Assembly (NCBI GenBank): GCA_019510435.1
Contig: JAEKKJ010000009.1
Span: forward strand, 124,001 to 188,000
Direction: 5' to 3'
Length of the DNA stretch: 64,000 bases
Origin: Caulobacterales bacterium
GTDB lineage: Bacteria > Pseudomonadota > Alphaproteobacteria > Caulobacterales > Caulobacteraceae
Shown here: positions 6,982 to 44,252 of the stretch, piece by piece
How positions within the stretch are numbered: the first letter of the stretch is position 1
Layout of the letters: each line of letters opens with the position of its first letter
The notes under the pieces: generated by a model
Databases searched by the model: none
What the model was told of the DNA's origin: nothing
The model's input: only the letters and a program-made list of their open reading frames with translations
Made by a program: the position numbers and the translations under genes

Positions 6982-8214
6982 ATGGACGCCCAGTCGCAAT
7001 GGACCGGCCTGGACGCGCAGCGGCTGGAGCGCATCGGCGAGCACCTGGAGCGCAACTACATCGGCCCCGGCAAGATCGCGGGTTGCCAGGTGAACGTCGC
7101 CCGGCACGGCCACCTGGCCTATTCGCGCAGCTTCGGCCTGATGGACAGCGAGCGCGGCAAGCCGATGGCCGACGACACCATCTTCCGCATCTATTCGATG
7201 ACCAAGCCGATCACCTCGGTGGCGCTGATGACCCTGTACGAGCAGGGCTATTTCCAGCTGAACGACCCGGTCTCGCGCTACGTCCCGTCCTGGAAGGACC
7301 ACCGCGTCTGGGCCTCCGGCGAGGGCGACACCATGGTCACGGAGCCGGCGCACCGGCCGGTGAGCTTCCGCGACGTGCTCTCCCACACCTCGGGCCTGAC
7401 CTATGGCGGCGGCCTGCCGGGCGTCGGCATCCAGCACCCGATCGACCGCATCTACCGCGAGCTGAAGGTGCGCTCGGTGGGCGGCGCGGACACCATGCAG
7501 CAGTTCATGGACAAGCTGGGCCAAGTGCCGCTGCGCTTTCAGCCGGGGACCCAGTGGATGTACTCCCTGGCCACCGACGTCTGCGGCGCCCTGGTGGAGA
7601 TCATCTCCGGCAAGCCCTTCGCCCAGTACCTGCAGGACGTGATCTTCGATCCGCTGGGCATGAAGGACACCAGCTTCTTCGTGCCGCCGGAGAAGGCGGG
7701 CCGCCTGGCCGCCAACTACCAGCGCAATCCGGACAAGACCCTGAAGCTGATCGACGATCCGGCCACCAGCGACTTCACCCGCAATCCGGGCTTCAAGTCG
7801 GGCGGCGGCGGGCTGACGGGGACCAGCGCCGACTACCTGCGCTTCTGCGAGATGCTTCGCCGGGGCGGCGAGCTGGACGGCCACCGGGTGCTGGGTCCCC
7901 GCACCCTCGAGCTGATGCACATGAACCACCTGCCCGGCGGCAAGGACCTGACCCAGCTCGCCCTGGGCAGCTTCTCGGAGACCGCCAACGAGGGCGTGGG
8001 CTTCGGCCTGGGCTTCGCCACCACCCTGGGCCAGGTGGAGACCGCCGGCCTCGGCGCCGGCGACTTCTACTGGGGCGGCGCGGCCTCGACGATCTTCTGG
8101 GTGGACCCCAAGGAGGACCTCTCTGTGGTGTTCATGACCCAGCTGATGCCATCGGGGACGTTCAACTTCCGCGGCCAGCTGAAGAGCATCATCTACTCAT
8201 CGATCATCGACTGA
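6982..8214 (+). CDS. Serine hydrolase of the beta-lactamase (class C / EstB-like) fold
   Basis: This is a 410-residue beta-lactamase-related family protein. The catalytic Ser-Met-Thr-Lys is at residues 72-75 and the Tyr-Ser-Leu motif at 194-196, both expected for class C-like penicillin-recognising folds. There is no signal peptide, so it is probably cytoplasmic and more likely an esterase or D-amino-peptide hydrolase than an antibiotic-resistance enzyme. A GGAGGA ribosome-binding site is well placed before the ATG. Its 3' end overlaps that of the convergent ATP-grasp gene by 11 bp. Confidence 0.87.
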   Translation: MDAQSQWTGLDAQRLERIGEHLERNYIGPGKIAGCQVNVARHGHLAYSRSFGLMDSERGKPMADDTIFRIYSMTKPITSVALMTLYEQGYFQLNDPVSRYVPSWKDHRVWASGEGDTMVTEPAHRPVSFRDVLSHTSGLTYGGGLPGVGIQHPIDRIYRELKVRSVGGADTMQQFMDKLGQVPLRFQPGTQWMYSLATDVCGALVEIISGKPFAQYLQDVIFDPLGMKDTSFFVPPEKAGRLAANYQRNPDKTLKLIDDPATSDFTRNPGFKSGGGGLTGTSADYLRFCEMLRRGGELDGHRVLGPRTLELMHMNHLPGGKDLTQLALGSFSETANEGVGFGLGFATTLGQVETAGLGAGDFYWGGAASTIFWVDPKEDLSVVFMTQLMPSGTFNFRGQLKSIIYSSIID

Positions 8215-9088
8215 GGACGGCGCCGGTGGCGGCGCGCCGCAGGATCGCCTCTGCCTTGCCGACCAGGTGGTCCAGCATGGCGCCCGCCACGTCGATGCCG
8301 GCCGTCTCCTGCGCCTGGGCGAAGTAGCAGGGGAAGTTGGACTCCAGCAGATAGAGCCGACCGCTCTCGTGCTCCAGGATGTCGACGCCGCCCAGCTCGA
8401 CCTCCTGCGCCCGTGCGGCCGCCACGGCGAGCCGCGCCATCTGCGGGTCGGGCTGGTCGGTGTAGTCGCTCGCCTCAGCGCTGGCGGAGGTGCGGAAGTC
8501 GCCCGGATCGGCCACGTTGCGGTAGGCCGCCACGGCGCGCCCGCCCACTACGGTGACCCGCCAATGGACGGCCGGATGCACATAGGCGCTGAGGAACGGC
8601 GACTTGCCCTCGGCGAGCAAGAGGTCGGCCAGGGAATAGAGGGCCGCCGGGGAATCCACCCGCAGAGTGCCGACGCCCCGCGACCAGCCCAGCACCTTGA
8701 CGATCAGCGGATAGCCGCCCAGCCGCTCGGCCGCGGCGTCCAGTCGGTCGCGGGCCGCGTCGAGCAGCGGCAGGGTGCGCGGCGTCGGCAGGCCCAGCTG
8801 CTGGAAGTGCAGCGGGTGGTTCACCGCGTTGAAGAACGGGCCGAGCGGGCGGGTGTAGAAGGTGGCGACGCCGGGATGCACCAGGACCTGCTCGACCAGC
8901 GCGGCCGCCGCGCTGACCGCCGCGCAGTAGAGCATGTCGCCCTCGGCCAGGGCGGGCGCGTCCTCGAACGGGAAGGTGCGGGCGTCCACGGCCAGGAACT
9001 CGACCCCGCGCGCGGCGCTGGCCTCGGCCAGCAGCTGCAGGGTGATCTCGGGGACCTCGTCGTCGACGCAGACCAGCCGCATGCTCAC
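8204..9088 (-). CDS. RimK-like ATP-grasp enzyme
   Basis: This 294-residue protein has the ATP-grasp core. I-V-K-V-L-G-W-S-R-G-V-G-T matches the nucleotide-binding Lys and glycine-rich loop, R-V-T-V-V-G-G-R-A-V-A-A-Y-R-N is the RimK-type strand, and G-G-V-D-I-L-E ... L-L-E-S-N-F-P supplies the Mg-binding Glu/Asn residues. ATP-grasp enzymes join a carboxylate to an amine, thiol or hydroxyl through an acyl phosphate; in graspetide RiPPs they make ester or amide cross-links. Its start overlaps the stop of the 2OG oxygenase gene (ATGA), so the two are translationally coupled. The divergent neighbour encodes a PqqD-like protein with peptide repeats, a plausible substrate. Confidence 0.85.
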   Translation of the reverse strand: MSMRLVCVDDEVPEITLQLLAEASAARGVEFLAVDARTFPFEDAPALAEGDMLYCAAVSAAAALVEQVLVHPGVATFYTRPLGPFFNAVNHPLHFQQLGLPTPRTLPLLDAARDRLDAAAERLGGYPLIVKVLGWSRGVGTLRVDSPAALYSLADLLLAEGKSPFLSAYVHPAVHWRVTVVGGRAVAAYRNVADPGDFRTSASAEASDYTDQPDPQMARLAVAAARAQEVELGGVDILEHESGRLYLLESNFPCYFAQAQETAGIDVAGAMLDHLVGKAEAILRRAATGAVLSR

Positions 9089-9702
9089 GCCTCCAGGACC
9101 ACGCCGGGGATGGCGGGATCGGCCTCAAGGCCGGGCGCGAAGGCCGGCGCCACGGCACGGTCGGCGTAGATGAAGCTGGTGAGGGTGGTCTTCTCGCCGG
9201 CCGCCACCGCCAGACCCTCGTGCCAGGCCAGCGGGTCGGGCCGTCCGTCGGCCCCGTAGTTCATCCACATCGCCAGGCGGCCGCGCCGCGGCTCCAGGCG
9301 CAGGGCCGCGGGCCGCGCGCGGCCGAACCGGGTCTCGCCCCCTTGCGCGGGGCAGGTCAGCCACAGCATCGCCGTCACCACCAGGTGCGCGCCGCTCCAG
9401 GCGTAGCAGTCCACATGGGGCGGATGGCCTTCGCCCGCGTGGTAGCGGCGGAAGCGGAAGGTGTCGCCGAGGAGGTTGGCAAACCCCAGCACCGCCTCCA
9501 GCCGCGCCTGCAGGGCGGTCAGCTCCGGGGCGGCGGCGAGCGGCAGTTCGAAGTGCAGCCCGGTCCCGTCGTGCTGGGCCCCATAAGCCGTCCCCTCGCC
9601 GGCTGCCGCGAGGATCGCCGCGATCTCGTCCTCGTCCAGAAAACCGTCCGCCACGAAGATACGGGCCTCCGAGGCGACGCGGCGAAACCGGATTGTGGAC
9701 AT
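9085..9702 (-). CDS. 2OG-Fe(II) oxygenase (prolyl-4-hydroxylase-like)
   Basis: This 205-residue protein shows the double-stranded beta-helix pattern of 2-oxoglutarate/iron oxygenases: R-Y-H-A-G-E-G-H-P-P-H-V-D-C-Y-A-W, with His-x-Asp as the first two iron ligands, and a distal H-E-G-L-A-V-A-A-G-E-K that fits the third His and the 2OG-binding basic residue. Such enzymes hydroxylate peptide or protein side chains, often Pro, Asn, Asp or Lys. It is the first gene of a two-gene minus-strand unit with the ATP-grasp gene. It lies 84 bp from the divergent repeat-protein gene, so all three may share control. Substrate assignment is inference. Confidence 0.83.
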   Translation of the reverse strand: MSTIRFRRVASEARIFVADGFLDEDEIAAILAAAGEGTAYGAQHDGTGLHFELPLAAAPELTALQARLEAVLGFANLLGDTFRFRRYHAGEGHPPHVDCYAWSGAHLVVTAMLWLTCPAQGGETRFGRARPAALRLEPRRGRLAMWMNYGADGRPDPLAWHEGLAVAAGEKTTLTSFIYADRAVAPAFAPGLEADPAIPGVVLEA

Positions 9703-9786
9703 GGGTCGGCGAACGCTCCTCGGCCCGAATTGTCACGCTTGCCGGGCCTATGTACAGTCCCGCTCTCGCAGCGGATGGAGGCCCCG

Positions 9787-10545
9787 ATGTCACAGTTCCC
9801 AGTCGCCAAGCGTAACCGAACGATCGCCCTGCAAGTCGGTCCCGAGCTCGTCGTCCAGGATCGTTCGGGGCAAGAGCTTGCCCGGCTGGATGCGCTGGAC
9901 GCCTTCCTCTGGGAGTCGGCTGACGGGACCATCGGCGTGCCGGACCTGGCCCGGCGAGCCAGCGAATCGCTCGGCGCTGCGGTCGACCGCGAAACGGTTT
10001 GGTCCGCCCTCGACCGGCTGGCCGACGCCGGCCTGCTGGAACAGCGCGCGACGCCGCCCGGATCGCTGCCGGACGTGTCGCGCCGCGCCATGCTCACCCG
10101 GGCCGGCCTCGGGCTGGCGGGGCTGACCGGCGCCGCCGTGGTCGCCCAGCCCGCCTTCGCCGCGGTCGCCTCCGAGGCCCTGGGCAAGCACGACGCCGCT
10201 GCGAAGCAGAGCGCCGCCTCCGCCGCGCCACGCGAACAGGCCAAGAAGCAGGCGGTGGCCTCCCAGCCGACCCGTGAACAGCACACCAAGGCCATGGCGG
10301 CTCAGCCGACCCGTGAACAGCACACCAAGGCCGTGGCGGCTCAGCCGACCCGTGAACAGCACACCAAGGCCCTGGCGGCTCGCCCGACTCGTGAGCAGGC
10401 CAAAAAGCAGGGCCTCGCGTCTGCAGCTCCGCGTGAGCAGGCCAAGAAGCAGGGCCTCGCCTCGGCGCCCACCCGCGAGCAGCACCGCAAGGCCCTGGCC
10501 TCCGCCCCGGCCCGCGAACAGGCCCGCAAGCAAGGGCTCGCCTGA
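9787..10545 (+). CDS. PqqD-like domain protein with Tat-like segment and eight C-terminal peptide repeats (candidate RiPP precursor)
   Basis: The start at 9787 has GGAGG five bases upstream and gives 252 residues in three parts. Residues ~12-85 look like a PqqD/RRE winged-helix domain (Q-V-G-P-E-L-V-V-Q-D, L-D-A-L-D-A-F-L-W-E-S-A-D-G-T, A-L-D-R-L-A-D-A-G-L-L-E). Residues 97-125 form a Tat-like segment: Ser-Arg-Arg, a hydrophobic stretch and an A-F-A cleavage-like site. Residues 144-252 hold eight repeats of 13-14 residues around Pro-[Thr/Ala]-Arg-Glu-Gln-[His/Ala]-x-Lys. RREs bind leader peptides in RiPP systems, and repeated tails are typical of multi-core precursors. With an ATP-grasp and a 2OG oxygenase opposite, I infer a modified repeat peptide, possibly exported. 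It could instead be an unmodified envelope protein. Confidence 0.7.
   Translation: MSQFPVAKRNRTIALQVGPELVVQDRSGQELARLDALDAFLWESADGTIGVPDLARRASESLGAAVDRETVWSALDRLADAGLLEQRATPPGSLPDVSRRAMLTRAGLGLAGLTGAAVVAQPAFAAVASEALGKHDAAAKQSAASAAPREQAKKQAVASQPTREQHTKAMAAQPTREQHTKAVAAQPTREQHTKALAARPTREQAKKQGLASAAPREQAKKQGLASAPTREQHRKALASAPAREQARKQGLA
10216..10542 (+). repeat. Eight in-frame tandem peptide repeats (39-42 bp units)
   Basis: The repeats occur inside the PqqD-like gene. The Arg of the conserved Arg-Glu-Gln falls at residues 149, 163, 176, 189, 202, 216, 230 and 243. Two unit types are interleaved: a 13-residue type with Gln-His-Thr/Arg-Lys-Ala and a 14-residue type with Gln-Ala-Lys/Arg-Lys-Gln-Gly (the first such unit lacks one or both of these last features). 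Three adjacent 39-bp units near 10264-10380 are almost identical in DNA, which points to recent expansion by slippage or unequal exchange. Confidence 0.92.
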
Positions 10546-10622
10546 CCTGAAGGTCGCCTGCTGACACATCCCTGTCAGCAGGCGCGCCGTATCCAGGGCC
10601 CTCGAAGCCCGAGGGACCGGAC

Positions 10623-11096
10623 ATGGCCTACGACGCCCACGACGACGGACGGCGCGACTTCCACTTCCTCTATGGCCGCTGGCGCGTGGCGCATCGGCGG
10701 CGGCTCGCGCGCGGCGCCGACGACTGGCGGGCCTTCGAAGGGACCAGCTATTGCCAGGGCCTGATGGGCGGCCTGTGCAATGTCGACGAGCACGACATGC
10801 CGGAGGGCGGGCTGCAGGGCCTGACCCTGCGCACCTTCGACCCCCAGGCGGCCCGCTGGTCGATCCGCTGGCTCAACGCCGCCACCGGCGAGCTCCAGCC
10901 GGCCATCTGCGGCCGGTTCGACCAGGGCGTGGGGCGCTTTGAAGGCGAGGACATGGAGGATGGCGCCCCGGTCAAGGTGGCGTATCTGTGGGAGGCGATC
11001 ACCCCGGGCTCGGCGCGCTGGTCGCAGGCCTTCTCCTATGACGCCGGCGAAAGCTGGGAGACCAACTGGATCATGGATTTCACCCGCACTGCATGA
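10623..11096 (+). CDS. Conserved hypothetical protein, DUF1579-like
   Basis: The 157-residue protein has the pattern of a common small family often annotated DUF1579-like: D-F-H-F-L-Y-G-R-W-R-V, F-E-G-T-S, L-R-T-F-D-P-Q-A-A-R-W-S-I-R-W-L and a C-terminal S-W-E-T-N-W-I-M-D-F-T-R. The Trp-rich strands suggest a lipocalin-like or beta-barrel fold that could bind a small molecule. There is no signal peptide. It overlaps the LysE-family gene by 4 bp (ATGA) and so forms an operon with it. The function is unknown. Confidence 0.7.
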   Translation: MAYDAHDDGRRDFHFLYGRWRVAHRRRLARGADDWRAFEGTSYCQGLMGGLCNVDEHDMPEGGLQGLTLRTFDPQAARWSIRWLNAATGELQPAICGRFDQGVGRFEGEDMEDGAPVKVAYLWEAITPGSARWSQAFSYDAGESWETNWIMDFTRTA

Positions 11097-42579: not shown

Positions 42580-43818
42580 TTAGGTCACGGCCTGCGGTCC
42601 TGCGAACGCCAGCGCGACGTTGAGGCCGCCGAAGGCGAAGGCGTTCTGGAGCAGCACCTGCGAGCTGATCTTCCGCGCCTGGCCGGTCACCACGTCGAGG
42701 TCGCAGGCCTCGTCGCGGGCCGTGAAGCCCAGCACCGGCGGCGCGAGGCCTTCGGCAAGGGCGCGCAGCCCCAGGGCCGCCTGCAGGGCCGCCGAGCCGC
42801 CGATCAGGTGGCCGTGGGCGCTCTTGGTGGCGATCACTGGCAGGCGCCGCACGCCCTCGCCGAACACCTGCACCAGGCTCTGGGTCTCGGAGGCGTCGTT
42901 CAGCGGCGTGCCGGTGCCGTGGGCCGAGACCAGGATGTCCTCGCGCCCGACCAGCTGCGCCTGGGCGGCGGCCTGGCGCATGGCGCGCGCCTGGCCTTCC
43001 ACCTGCGGCTGGGTGATGTGGTAGGCGTCCGACGACATGCCCGAGCCGATCAGCTCGCCGAGGATCGGGGCGCCCCGCGCCCGGGCGCGCTCGAGGTCCT
43101 CCAGCACCAGCACCGCGCCGCCCTCGCCCAGCACCATCCCGTCGCGGTCGGCGGAGAACGGGCGGCAGGCGGTGGGCGACATGGCGCGGATCGACTCCCA
43201 GGCGCGCAGGCAGCCAGGCGTGGAGACCGCCTCGCTGCCGCCGGCCAGCGCTACGTCCGCCTGGCCGGTCGCGATCAGGCCTGCCGCCTGGACGATGGCG
43301 TGGGCCGAGGAGGCGCAGGCGCTGGAGGTGGCGAACACCGGGCCGTGCATGCCGAAGGCCATCGCCGCGGCGCTGACGCCGGCGCTCACCATCGAGCGCG
43401 GAATGGTCGCCGGGTGCAGGCGCGGCGAGCGCTGGCCGAAATAGCGGTCGTAGGCGACCTCCAGGGTCTCCAGCCCGCAGAGGCCGTGGCCGAACACCAC
43501 CGCCGTGCGCTCGCTCAGCACCGGATCGCCGGTCAGGCCCGCCTGGGCCAGGGCCTCGACGCTGGGGCCCAGGACGAAGCGCGCGAACGGATCGAGTCCG
43601 GCGGCGAACGCTCGCCCCAGCTTCTCGTCCACCAGCTTCTCGTAGCCCGCGGCCACCCGGGCCAGCGGCAGCTCCAGGGCCTCGGGCTCGCGCGGCCCGC
43701 CGCCCATCGCGTGGCGCGCGATGCCGCCGCGACCCTCGACCACCGCCTGCCAGTTCTCGTCCAGGGAAGCGCCGAGCGCGGAGACCGCGCCCAGGCCAGT
43801 GACGGCGATCCGCCTCAC
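42580..43818 (-). CDS. Beta-ketoacyl-ACP synthase, FabF/KS family
   Basis: The 412-residue protein begins M-R-R-I-A-V-T-G-L-G-A-V-S-A-L-G. The Cys-His-His triad is in place: S-S-A-C-A-S-S-A-H, S-A-H-G-T-G-T-P-L-N-D and K-S-A-H-G-H-L-I-G-G. It condenses malonyl-ACP with an acyl chain. It is coupled to a dedicated acyl carrier protein gene, far from the usual fab genes, which points to secondary lipid or polyketide synthesis linked to the convergent operon. Confidence 0.9.
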   Translation of the reverse strand: MRRIAVTGLGAVSALGASLDENWQAVVEGRGGIARHAMGGGPREPEALELPLARVAAGYEKLVDEKLGRAFAAGLDPFARFVLGPSVEALAQAGLTGDPVLSERTAVVFGHGLCGLETLEVAYDRYFGQRSPRLHPATIPRSMVSAGVSAAAMAFGMHGPVFATSSACASSAHAIVQAAGLIATGQADVALAGGSEAVSTPGCLRAWESIRAMSPTACRPFSADRDGMVLGEGGAVLVLEDLERARARGAPILGELIGSGMSSDAYHITQPQVEGQARAMRQAAAQAQLVGREDILVSAHGTGTPLNDASETQSLVQVFGEGVRRLPVIATKSAHGHLIGGSAALQAALGLRALAEGLAPPVLGFTARDEACDLDVVTGQARKISSQVLLQNAFAFGGLNVALAFAGPQAVT

Positions 43819-44063
43819 GCGGGGCTCACCGCCCGCGCCTTGAGCTTGTCCATCAGTTCGCCCAGGGTCACGCAGTCCTTCAGCTCGTCCTCCTCGACGT
43901 GGATTCCGAACTTCTCCTCCACCTCGAACAGGATGCTGATCACGTCGAGGGACGCGATGCCCAGGTCTTCCAGCTTCGCATCGCGCGCCAGCCGGTCCCG
44001 ATCCACGAGCGCCTCCTTGGCGATCACTTCGAAGAGCTCGTCGTCGTCAGGAACAGTCGCCAT
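43815..44063 (-). CDS. Acyl carrier protein
   Basis: From the ATG at 44063 the protein is 82 residues with the ACP helix pattern and the phosphopantetheine attachment Ser in L-E-D-L-G-I-A-S-L-D-V-I. Acidic residues dominate (E-V-E-E-K-F-G-I-H-V-E-E-D). The stop overlaps the start of the ketosynthase gene. It is a pathway-specific ACP rather than the housekeeping AcpP, judged from its sequence and context. Confidence 0.88.
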   Translation of the reverse strand: MATVPDDDELFEVIAKEALVDRDRLARDAKLEDLGIASLDVISILFEVEEKFGIHVEEDELKDCVTLGELMDKLKARAVSPA

Positions 44064-44252
44064 CAAACACCATCCGCCGCGCGCGATCGGCCACGGCCGC
44101 CGCGCAAGATTGAGACGCCACGTGCGCAAGGCGCCCTCAACCGGCGCTGAGGAGGTCCGCTGTGGCGAAGGGCCGTCCGGCGACAACACACCGAAACGGA
44201 CGCCTTTCCTAGCGCCTTCTAGCCCGGCGCGCCGGGCGGGGTCGAGGCGCCA

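What the first reader, a model, noticed from the sequence alone, without database searches (positions are those of the whole stretch)
8204..10545. Compact RiPP-like locus: PqqD-like repeat protein opposite a 2OG oxygenase and an ATP-grasp enzyme
Seen: an oxygenase (9085-9702) and an ATP-grasp gene (8204-9088) share an ATGA overlap, and a divergent gene 84 bp away encodes a protein with a PqqD-like domain, a Tat-like segment and eight peptide repeats. Known: RRE/PqqD domains bind leader peptides in RiPP pathways, ATP-grasp enzymes form graspetide cross-links, and 2OG oxygenases hydroxylate peptides. Inference: the repeat tail is the substrate of both enzymes, with the RRE fused to its own substrate, and the product may be exported through Tat. 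I know no described system with exactly this set.
Basis: partly seen in the sequence, partly recalled or inferred. Interest (0 to 1): 0.85.

Follow-up and report, generated by a model that had tools for sequence, protein, structure and literature searches.

The report
Enzyme-stapled, Tat-exported repeat protein
Beside genes for an ATP-grasp ligase and an oxygenase, this bacterium encodes a repeat protein in which glutamate and lysine sit exactly four residues apart, a pattern shared by relatives in many bacterial groups, and the two enzymes are predicted to tie each such pair into a cross-link (a natural 'stapled' helix) before the protein is likely exported from the cell.

Summary
The three genes are real and are gained or lost as one cassette. 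The ATP-grasp gene belongs to a distinct RimK-clade family (178 proteins at E<=1e-20, the window's own included). In 29 of 33 assessable genome loci a repeat protein lies beside or near it whose tail has one outstanding rule: Glu is followed by Lys at exactly +4. In 29 tails chosen without regard to Glu or Lys this pair occurs 373 times against 70 expected. Glu-Arg and Asp-Lys at +4 are not enriched, and Pro never occurs inside the motif (0 of 1308 positions, 37 expected). In five Nannocystis orthologues motif residues are far better conserved than other Glu or Lys. That specificity argues for a Glu-Lys side-chain bond, not a salt bridge. The leader is predicted to fold as a RiPP recognition element and runs into a twin-arginine signal. 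The oxygenase (iron ligands intact) is optional and often fused to the ligase. Best reading: the ligase makes i,i+4 Glu-Lys isopeptides, the oxygenase hydroxylates them (probably Lys), and Tat exports the stapled tail. The closest precedent is corallotide (KxxxD, hydroxylated isopeptide, 2026), which differs in leader, polarity and ligase clade. Chemistry is unproven.

The parts
8204..9088 (-). RimK-clade ATP-grasp ligase, predicted to join Glu and Lys side chains of the repeat tail
9085..9702 (-). 2OG-Fe(II) oxygenase, predicted to hydroxylate the cross-linked units
   Evidence: PF13640 2.8e-7; iron ligands H96, D98, H161 present in 18 of 18 aligned family domains; fused to the ATP-grasp enzyme in 11 of 36 loci
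9703..9786 (.). 84-bp divergent intergenic region between the enzyme pair and the repeat-protein gene
   Evidence: sequence; the same divergent arrangement in L033/G035
9787..10545 (+). substrate protein: RRE leader, Tat signal, repeat tail (252 aa)
   Evidence: same architecture in relatives
9787..10056 (+). residues 1-90: PqqD-like RRE domain
   Evidence: model pLDDT 86-98 per ten-residue block over residues 1-90; best PDB matches are RRE domains (TbiB1 5v1u at 6.8e-4; then, at weaker E, 6jx3, PbtF 8t19, PqqD 5sxy)
10075..10161 (+). residues 97-125: twin-arginine signal (SRRAML, hydrophobic stretch, AFA)
   Evidence: RR invariant in the 25 leaders aligned (four of 28 relatives' proteins had been left out of that alignment); 25 of 28 relatives have RR plus hydrophobic stretch
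10165..10542 (+). residues 127-252: repeat tail, predicted to be exported; nine E-x-x-x-K units at Glu 130, 150, 164, 177, 190, 203, 217, 231, 244
   Evidence: all 9 Glu of the tail have Lys at +4
8215..10622 (.). extent of the cassette between two resident genes (the ATP-grasp stop end overlaps the resident gene by 11 bases)
   Evidence: in relatives G002, G012 and G014 orthologues of the two flanking genes lie about 80-112 bp apart with none of the three cassette genes between them

Best explanation
This is a three-gene cassette for a repeat protein whose tail carries Glu and Lys at a fixed i,i+4 spacing; the adjacent RimK-clade ATP-grasp enzyme is predicted to join each pair by a Glu-Lys isopeptide bond, the oxygenase would then likely hydroxylate the linked unit, and the tail is likely exported by the Tat route. 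How it would work: the RRE-like leader domain, which is part of the substrate itself, recruits the enzyme pair (inferred). The ATP-grasp enzyme activates the Glu side-chain carboxylate as an acyl phosphate, as its LysX and graspetide-ligase relatives do, and the Lys side chain one helical turn later attacks it, losing water (-18 Da per unit; inferred). Where the 2OG-Fe(II) oxygenase is present it acts with the ligase, often in one fused polypeptide, and probably hydroxylates the linked Lys (+16 Da; inferred by analogy with CorC of corallotide). ATP and 2-oxoglutarate are cytoplasmic, so the modification would precede export. Tat carries folded substrates, and cleavage after the AxA-type end of the Tat signal would remove leader and signal in one step, which would explain why no protease or transporter recurs beside these genes across lineages. 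The product would be a chain of lactam-stapled helical segments outside the cell, in some lineages probably held at the surface by a PEP-CTERM-like end.
For: Shown: (1) E to K at +4 in 29 C-terminal regions found by the leader model alone: 373 observed, 70.1 +/- 6.8 expected; all other E-K spacings from -12 to +12 lie at 0.37-1.65 times expectation. +4 is the commonest forward spacing (1-12) in 27 of these 29 proteins, and in 31 of 33 when four found by their E/K pattern are added (tails trimmed slightly differently). (2) Specificity: over the 33 tails E to R at +4 is 43 against 63 expected and D to K at +4 is 30 against 37, whereas 244 neighbouring genes show 209/143 for E-K and 438/386 for E-R. 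(3) In L053, L055 and L060 every tail Lys (14/14, 15/15, 14/14) has Glu at -4; in the window 9 of 9 tail Glu have Lys at +4. (4) Among five Nannocystis orthologues identity is 280/288 at motif Glu, 262/288 at motif Lys, 180/375 at other Glu, 0/30 at other Lys, 2785/4727 elsewhere. (5) No Pro in 1308 positions inside 436 motifs of 31 tails (37.1 expected), fitting a helical turn. (6) An E-x-x-x-K tail protein lies beside or near the ligase in 29 of 33 assessable loci, in three gene orders. (7) Oxygenase and ligase are fused in 11 of 36 loci and in 10 of 120 listed homologues, in both orders. (8) Predicted RRE fold; Tat RR in 25 of 28. (9) The three genes are gained or lost together: strong matches in the same 2 of 60 genomes and an empty site in three relatives. 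(10) Ligase fold closest to RimK, LysX and ArgX. Precedent: CorB/CorC make and hydroxylate an i,i+4 Lys-Asp isopeptide, bind each other, and CorC activates CorB (PMC13097080; outline and sections 7, 10, 11, 12 read).
Against: No chemistry was measured. The ligase scores far below the graspetide-ligase model TIGR04187 (27 bits, cut-off 350) and lies nearest to RimK, which adds free glutamate; two residues that hold glutamate in Pseudomonas RimK (R189, N262) are retained. In the fold comparison graspetide ligases (20.1 and less) rank no higher than glutathione synthetase (20.7) or D-cycloserine synthetase (20.6). Seventeen of 36 loci show no oxygenase, so its role rests on co-occurrence, fusion and analogy. 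L063 and L066 show the ligase with no such tail protein in view; L065/L067 have an RRE protein whose E-K peak is at +3 and which lacks Tat; L062/L064 have the motif tail without RRE or Tat. Not every Glu or Lys is in a motif (35% of Glu and of Lys in L046). K to E at +4 is also raised (141/83) and R to E at +3 too (100/64), which ordinary helix salt bridges would give. Seven of the 29 loci (L033, L036, L039, L042, L043, L045, L048) do not pass p<1e-4 when the whole frame is scored. Tails with several Lys per unit (L036, L042) look more like plain basic repeats.
Confidence: 0.66

Rival explanations
1. The ATP-grasp enzyme acts as its nearest relatives RimK and LysX do: it adds free amino acids (Glu or another) to the side-chain carboxylates of the repeat Glu, and the Lys at +4 is only a recognition element.
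For: rimK_fam and LysX models match 31 of 31 members (the window's scores are below both cut-offs); RimK is the nearest solved sequence and fold; R189 and N262, which hold glutamate in Pseudomonas aeruginosa RimK (PMC10092738, passages), align with the invariant R176 and N250.
Against: It gives no reason why Lys, and not Arg, must stand at exactly +4, nor why motif Lys is conserved at 262/288 and other Lys at 0/30.
Confidence: 0.14
2. The tail is a plain single-helix or coiled-coil protein held by Glu-Lys salt bridges at i,i+4; the enzymes modify it elsewhere or modify something else.
For: E-K and K-E at +4 are raised in ordinary neighbouring genes too (209/143 and 203/143); in the tails K-E at +4 (141/83) and R-E at +3 (100/64) are raised as well; tails are rich in Ala, Gln, Glu, Lys.
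Against: A salt bridge accepts Arg for Lys and Asp for Glu; both are below expectation at +4 here (43/63, 30/37), and the E-K excess is about 5-fold, not 1.5-fold. The window tail has no K to E pair at +4.
Confidence: 0.12
3. The RRE protein is a scaffold or delivery partner: it brings the enzymes to another peptide and its tail is not modified.
For: Discrete RRE proteins usually serve other substrates (established knowledge); related leaders carry other tails (P0002, P0003).
Against: No other candidate substrate recurs: in a Pfam tally of 103 flanking genes no family matches more than five, and those matched five times are probably the shared gene order of five Nannocystis loci. The tail carries the pattern, and L062/L064 keep the tail without the RRE. 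Small unannotated peptides were not searched for.
Confidence: 0.05

Closest known systems
Corallotide (CorA-CorD, Corallococcus exercitus, graspetide group 15; PMC13097080)
   Same: Large repeat substrate, ATP-grasp ligase making an i,i+4 Lys-carboxylate isopeptide in each repeat, then a PF13640 2OG-Fe(II) oxygenase that hydroxylates the linked Lys; the two enzymes bind each other. Here the same steps are predicted.
   Different: Motif there is KxxxD (Lys first), here ExxxK (Glu first). CorB is a TIGR04187 ligase, here a RimK-clade ligase far below that cut-off. CorA has a helical N-terminal domain, here a predicted RRE plus Tat signal. The paper reports group 15 from Corallococcus only, with beta-lactamase CorD in all; here loci come from several phyla and PF00144 matches at most one of 103 flanking genes.
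Graspetides in general (microviridin, plesiocin; ligases MdnB/C, PsnB)
   Same: ATP-grasp enzyme linking side-chain carboxylates to side-chain nucleophiles (predicted here); several have repeated cores.
RimK / LysX / ArgX ligases
   Same: Same fold and closest sequence; LysX and ArgX join an amine to the side-chain carboxylate of a protein Glu (established knowledge).
   Different: They use a free amino acid as the amine; here the amine is predicted to be a Lys of the same chain. The HMMER match to E. coli RimK covers profile positions 87-277 only.
PqqD and other RRE proteins
   Same: Predicted fold of residues 1-90; weak PF05402 similarity in the family.
   Different: Usually separate or fused to the enzyme (established knowledge); here fused to the substrate.

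Membership tests
Graspetide (peptide class) | side-chain ester or amide linkages made by an ATP-grasp ligase | not testable with these tools
   needs mass spectrometry; only the E-x-x-x-K pattern and the ligase fold are in hand
Graspetide ligase subfamilies (TIGR04187, TIGR04184, TIGR04185) | score above the curated model cut-off | tested here: not met
   window enzyme 27 bits on TIGR04187, cut-off 350, and no match to TIGR04184/04185 at E<=1; 30 of 31 family members match TIGR04187 at E<=0.001, best 7.3e-11, while rimK_fam matches 31 of 31, best 3e-27; P0107 matches TIGR04184/04185 at 13.7 and 12.6 bits
RimK family (TIGR00768) | score above cut-off 143.4 | tested here: not met
   73.4 bits, although fold and sequence are closest to RimK
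Corallotide-type (graspetide group 15) | repeated KxxxD motif | tested here: not met
   K followed by D at +4: 36 against 32.4 expected over 29 tails, no excess (row D-K at -4); the motif is Glu first, Lys second
Corallotide-type (graspetide group 15) | PF13640 oxygenase beside the ligase | tested here: met
   window PF13640 2.8e-7; oxygenase in 19 of 36 loci, in L036 a partial match
Corallotide-type (graspetide group 15) | beta-lactamase (PF00144) as conserved member | tested here: not met
   a PF00144 gene abuts the cassette in the window, but it has 76-88% identical relatives in 20 of 23 same-genus genomes, none of them with strong matches to the cassette genes, and PF00144 matches at most one of 103 flanking genes in the 36 loci (25 of 104 families shown, all those with two or more matches among them)
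RRE (PqqD-like) domain | three strands plus winged-helix fold of RRE proteins | tested here: met
   predicted: three strands then three helices; top Foldseek hits are RRE domains, best E 6.8e-4, the only one below 0.001; PF05402 cut-off passed by 2 of 10 family members scanned, not by the window protein
Tat substrate | twin-arginine motif before a hydrophobic stretch | tested here: met
   the window and 25 of 28 RRE-bearing relatives: 26 by pattern, of which L065 and L067 were discounted for lack of a hydrophobic stretch, plus L052_85 read by eye
Tat substrate | export lost in tat mutants | not testable with these tools
   needs an experiment
2OG-Fe(II) oxygenase, PF13640 | HxD...H iron ligands | tested here: met
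   H96, D98, H161 in 18 of 18 domains aligned

The most novel reading that the evidence does not exclude
Bacteria of many phyla make natural lactam-stapled helices: a RimK-clade enzyme writes an i,i+4 Glu-Lys staple into every repeat of a protein that carries its own recognition domain and Tat signal, and sends the stapled, sometimes hydroxylated, rod to the cell surface as a structural fibre. This would be a new class of cross-linked exported protein, distinct from graspetide antibiotics and inhibitors.
Probability: 0.5. Interest if true: 0.92.

Novelty: new variant of a known kind. Interest (0 to 1): 0.86.

Why it matters
Chemists staple helices with i,i+4 lactams to make stable peptide drugs (recalled). 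A genetically encoded ligase that does this on repeats, with a portable leader domain, would be both a natural precedent and a tool. It would widen the ATP-grasp peptide-modifying enzymes to the RimK clade, show a recognition domain fused to its own substrate and carried as part of a Tat leader, and suggest a covalently reinforced extracellular material. The E-x-x-x-K rule makes the substrate, the residues and the mass shifts predictable, so one co-expression experiment decides it.

Tried and rejected
Beta-lactamase as a fourth member (suggested by the corallotide cluster): rejected. It is a resident gene of the genus (76-88% identical relatives in 20 of the 23 same-genus genomes), and in G002, G012 and G014 it stands next to the other flanking gene with an empty site where the cassette is.

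Dedicated protease or transporter: a Pfam tally of 103 flanking genes (those of 90-700 aa within two genes of the system in 36 loci; gene calls are my own) gave at most five matches per family (PMSR, a Peptidase_M48 and an S9/DLH/carboxylesterase-type hydrolase, five each), three for sigma-70 regions, two or fewer for the rest. The table does not name the members; I take the fives to be the five Nannocystis loci with shared gene order. A peptidase role there is not excluded.

Different flanking motifs with and without the oxygenase: compared (L042, L065, L067 left out of the set without oxygenase); both show E-Q-x-x-K; no clear oxygenase-specific residue.

A whole-genome background for E-x-x-x-K: not available; I used the loci's own frames and the window's 547 open frames. 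The first protein search with the full repeat protein was swamped by repeat words; the leader-only search found one distant relative besides the window. Literature: eight answered searches listed no paper that I recognised as describing an RRE-Tat-ExxxK system; (a 2009 review of ATP-grasp amidoligases, recalled as possibly relevant) is not held, so prior mention there is not excluded. Supplementary tables of PMC13097080 were not open to me, so whether one of its 43 graspetide groups contains this family is unknown.

Bias: L043, L044, L062 and L064 were found by E/K density, so they are not in the unbiased figure (29 tails). Poisson values treat repeats as independent; they are used only to rank frames, and only the three best frames per locus were printed. 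The genome-contig scan used two degenerate patterns, so 36 loci is a lower bound. Searches scored at most 65 and 6 first-look candidates per genome.
Full report
WHAT IS THERE. The three genes stand as described. The ATP-grasp gene (8204-9088, minus) matches PF08443 at 7.7e-14, the oxygenase (9085-9702, minus) PF13640 at 2.8e-7, and the repeat protein starts at ATG 9787 and ends at 10545. The overlap of the two enzyme genes is GTGA, not ATGA. The repeats are a tandem array with a unit near 39 bp; the motif Glu codon varies between units (GAA or GAG) while the motif Lys codon is AAG in all nine. The window lies in a 5.1-Mb genome (G000); a same-genus genome with the same cassette (G035, 62% and 57% identical enzymes) is, by matching contig number and positions, the record titled uncultured Phenylobacterium (L033).

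A CASSETTE THAT COMES AND GOES AS A UNIT. In 60 genomes (the window's own and relatives), strong matches to the ATP-grasp enzyme, the oxygenase and the leader model fall in the same two, G000 and G035; all other matches are weak (best 1.3e-13, 2.2e-6 and 3.2e-5). In three relatives, G002, G012 and G014, orthologues of the two genes that flank the cassette stand about 80-112 bp apart and none of the three cassette genes is found between them. So the cassette was inserted or lost whole, and the beta-lactamase next door is a resident. In a sample of 385 genomes of the class only the window genome has this ligase at E<=1e-50: rare and patchy.

A FAMILY WITH ONE RULE. A protein search gave 178 proteins at E<=1e-20, the window's own among them; 10 of the 120 listed are fused to a PF13640 domain, in both orders. 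An alignment of 31 found 36 loci in named genomes: Phenylobacterium, Acidobacteria, Planctomycetota, Nannocystis and other Myxococcota, Psychrosphaera and another Alteromonadaceae, Burkholderiales, Hydrogenedentota, Verrucomicrobia and others. Three contigs end too soon to judge (L056, L059, L068). Of the other 33, 29 carry beside or near the ligase a protein with an E-x-x-x-K tail, in divergent (1), convergent (21) or co-directional (7) order, with other genes between in L046, L050 and L052. Two more have an RRE protein without the +4 rule (L065, L067), and two show no such protein (L063, L066). An oxygenase is found in 19 of 36 loci, 8 as a separate gene (L036 a partial match) and 11 fused.

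THE RULE TESTED. Twenty-nine C-terminal regions were taken by the leader model alone. Glu followed by Lys at +4 occurs 373 times, 70.1 +/- 6.8 in 200 shuffles of each sequence; no other spacing from -12 to +12 exceeds 1.65 times expectation. Two within-sequence controls speak against mere helix stability: E to R at +4 and D to K at +4 are below expectation (42/57 and 24/32; 43/63 and 30/37 over 33 tails). In 244 other genes of the same loci E-K at +4 is 1.5-fold and E-R 1.1-fold. Against this, K to E at +4 (141/83) and R to E at +3 (100/64) are raised in the tails, as ordinary salt bridges would do; E-Q at +1 (205/85) and Q-K at +3 (209/80) reflect the common form E-Q-x-x-K. +4 is the leading forward spacing in 27 of the 29, and in 31 of 33 with the four found by pattern. 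In three Nannocystis tails every Lys has its Glu; in the window every tail Glu has its Lys. Across five Nannocystis orthologues motif Glu and Lys are identical in 280/288 and 262/288 comparisons, other Glu in 180/375, other Lys in 0/30 (few), the rest in 2785/4727. Inside 436 motifs of 31 tails there is no proline in 1308 positions, 37.1 expected, and Gly is 37 against 66.7. By frame, the frames passing p<1e-4 among the three best of each locus were these tail genes only (22 of 36 loci, 23 genes; seven of the 29 loci do not pass on the whole frame), and the window gene has the largest excess among its 547 frames.

LEADER. The predicted N-terminal domain has three strands and three helices at pLDDT 86-98 per ten-residue block, and its best matches in the PDB are leader-binding RRE domains: TbiB1 (6.8e-4, the only hit below 0.001), then another lasso B1, PbtF, ThcOx and PqqD itself. 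Of ten relatives scanned two pass the PqqD cut-off in Pfam, four match below it, and four, including L033, do not match PqqD at E<=0.1. After the domain come an invariant PP and RR in the 25 leaders aligned (L049, L052_85, L065 and L067 had been left out) and a hydrophobic stretch: a Tat signal in 25 of 28 RRE proteins; L049, L065 and L067 lack it. Several tails end in a PEP-CTERM-like segment (L039, L044, L052; read by eye), pointing to the cell surface.

HOW IT PROBABLY WORKS. Shown: the genes, the rule, the fusions, the linked gain or loss; predicted by model: the folds. Inferred: the RRE holds the enzyme pair, the ligase makes one Glu-Lys isopeptide per unit, the oxygenase hydroxylates it, Tat exports, and a signal peptidase removes leader and signal together. 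The inference is strengthened by corallotide, where a PF13640 oxygenase hydroxylates an i,i+4 isopeptide Lys after a TIGR04187 ligase has made it, and where oxygenase and ligase bind each other and the oxygenase activates the ligase (PMC13097080; passages, outline and sections 7, 10, 11 and 12 read). The family here is not corallotide: polarity (KxxxD 36 against 32.4 expected), ligase clade, leader and distribution differ, and the beta-lactamase is not part of it. Corallotide showed no significant bioactivity in that paper's panel and its samples precipitated once the N-terminal domain had been cut off, in keeping with a structural role.

WHAT IS NOT KNOWN. No mass was measured. Of PMC8939145 only passages were seen (no hits for oxygenase, 2OG, Tat or Nannocystis), and likewise of PMC12710340, PMC10092738, PMC13003496 and PMC4431377. 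Searches listed no description of this set that I recognised in the held library (listings only); subscription papers and supplements were not open. That i,i+4 lactams are used in synthetic helix stapling is recalled.

Noticed in passing
P0002, P0003: Closely related RRE-plus-RR leaders are followed by Thr/Pro-rich repeats with no E-x-x-x-K, so this leader type may serve other repeat-protein modifications.
   Followed up: no
L034:1531-2802, L035:8937-10319: Acidobacterial tail proteins have a globular-looking segment between two E/K-rich stretches, reminiscent of a fibre head (read by eye).
   Followed up: no
L039, L044, L052 tail proteins; possibly L041, L048: C-termini look like PEP-CTERM or similar surface-sorting ends (read by eye).
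   Followed up: partly
L062:7062-7988, L064:7022-7972: Planctomycetes keep an E-x-x-x-K protein directly upstream of the ligase but without RRE or Tat signal.
   Followed up: partly
L065:7157-7984, L067:7157-7984: RRE protein without Tat and with its E-K peak at +3 in place of +4: a possible variant of the rule.
   Followed up: partly
L052:8436-9515 and 9932-10900: One locus with two different tail proteins (33 and 15 motifs) near one fused ligase-oxygenase.
   Followed up: no
window 43818-44252 (-): A 145-residue open frame with 5 E-x-x-x-K against 0.6 expected, second in the window after the finding; not examined.
   Followed up: no
window 6982-8214 (+): PF00144 serine-hydrolase gene abutting the cassette, as in the corallotide cluster; here a resident of the genus, so most likely coincidence.
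   Followed up: yes
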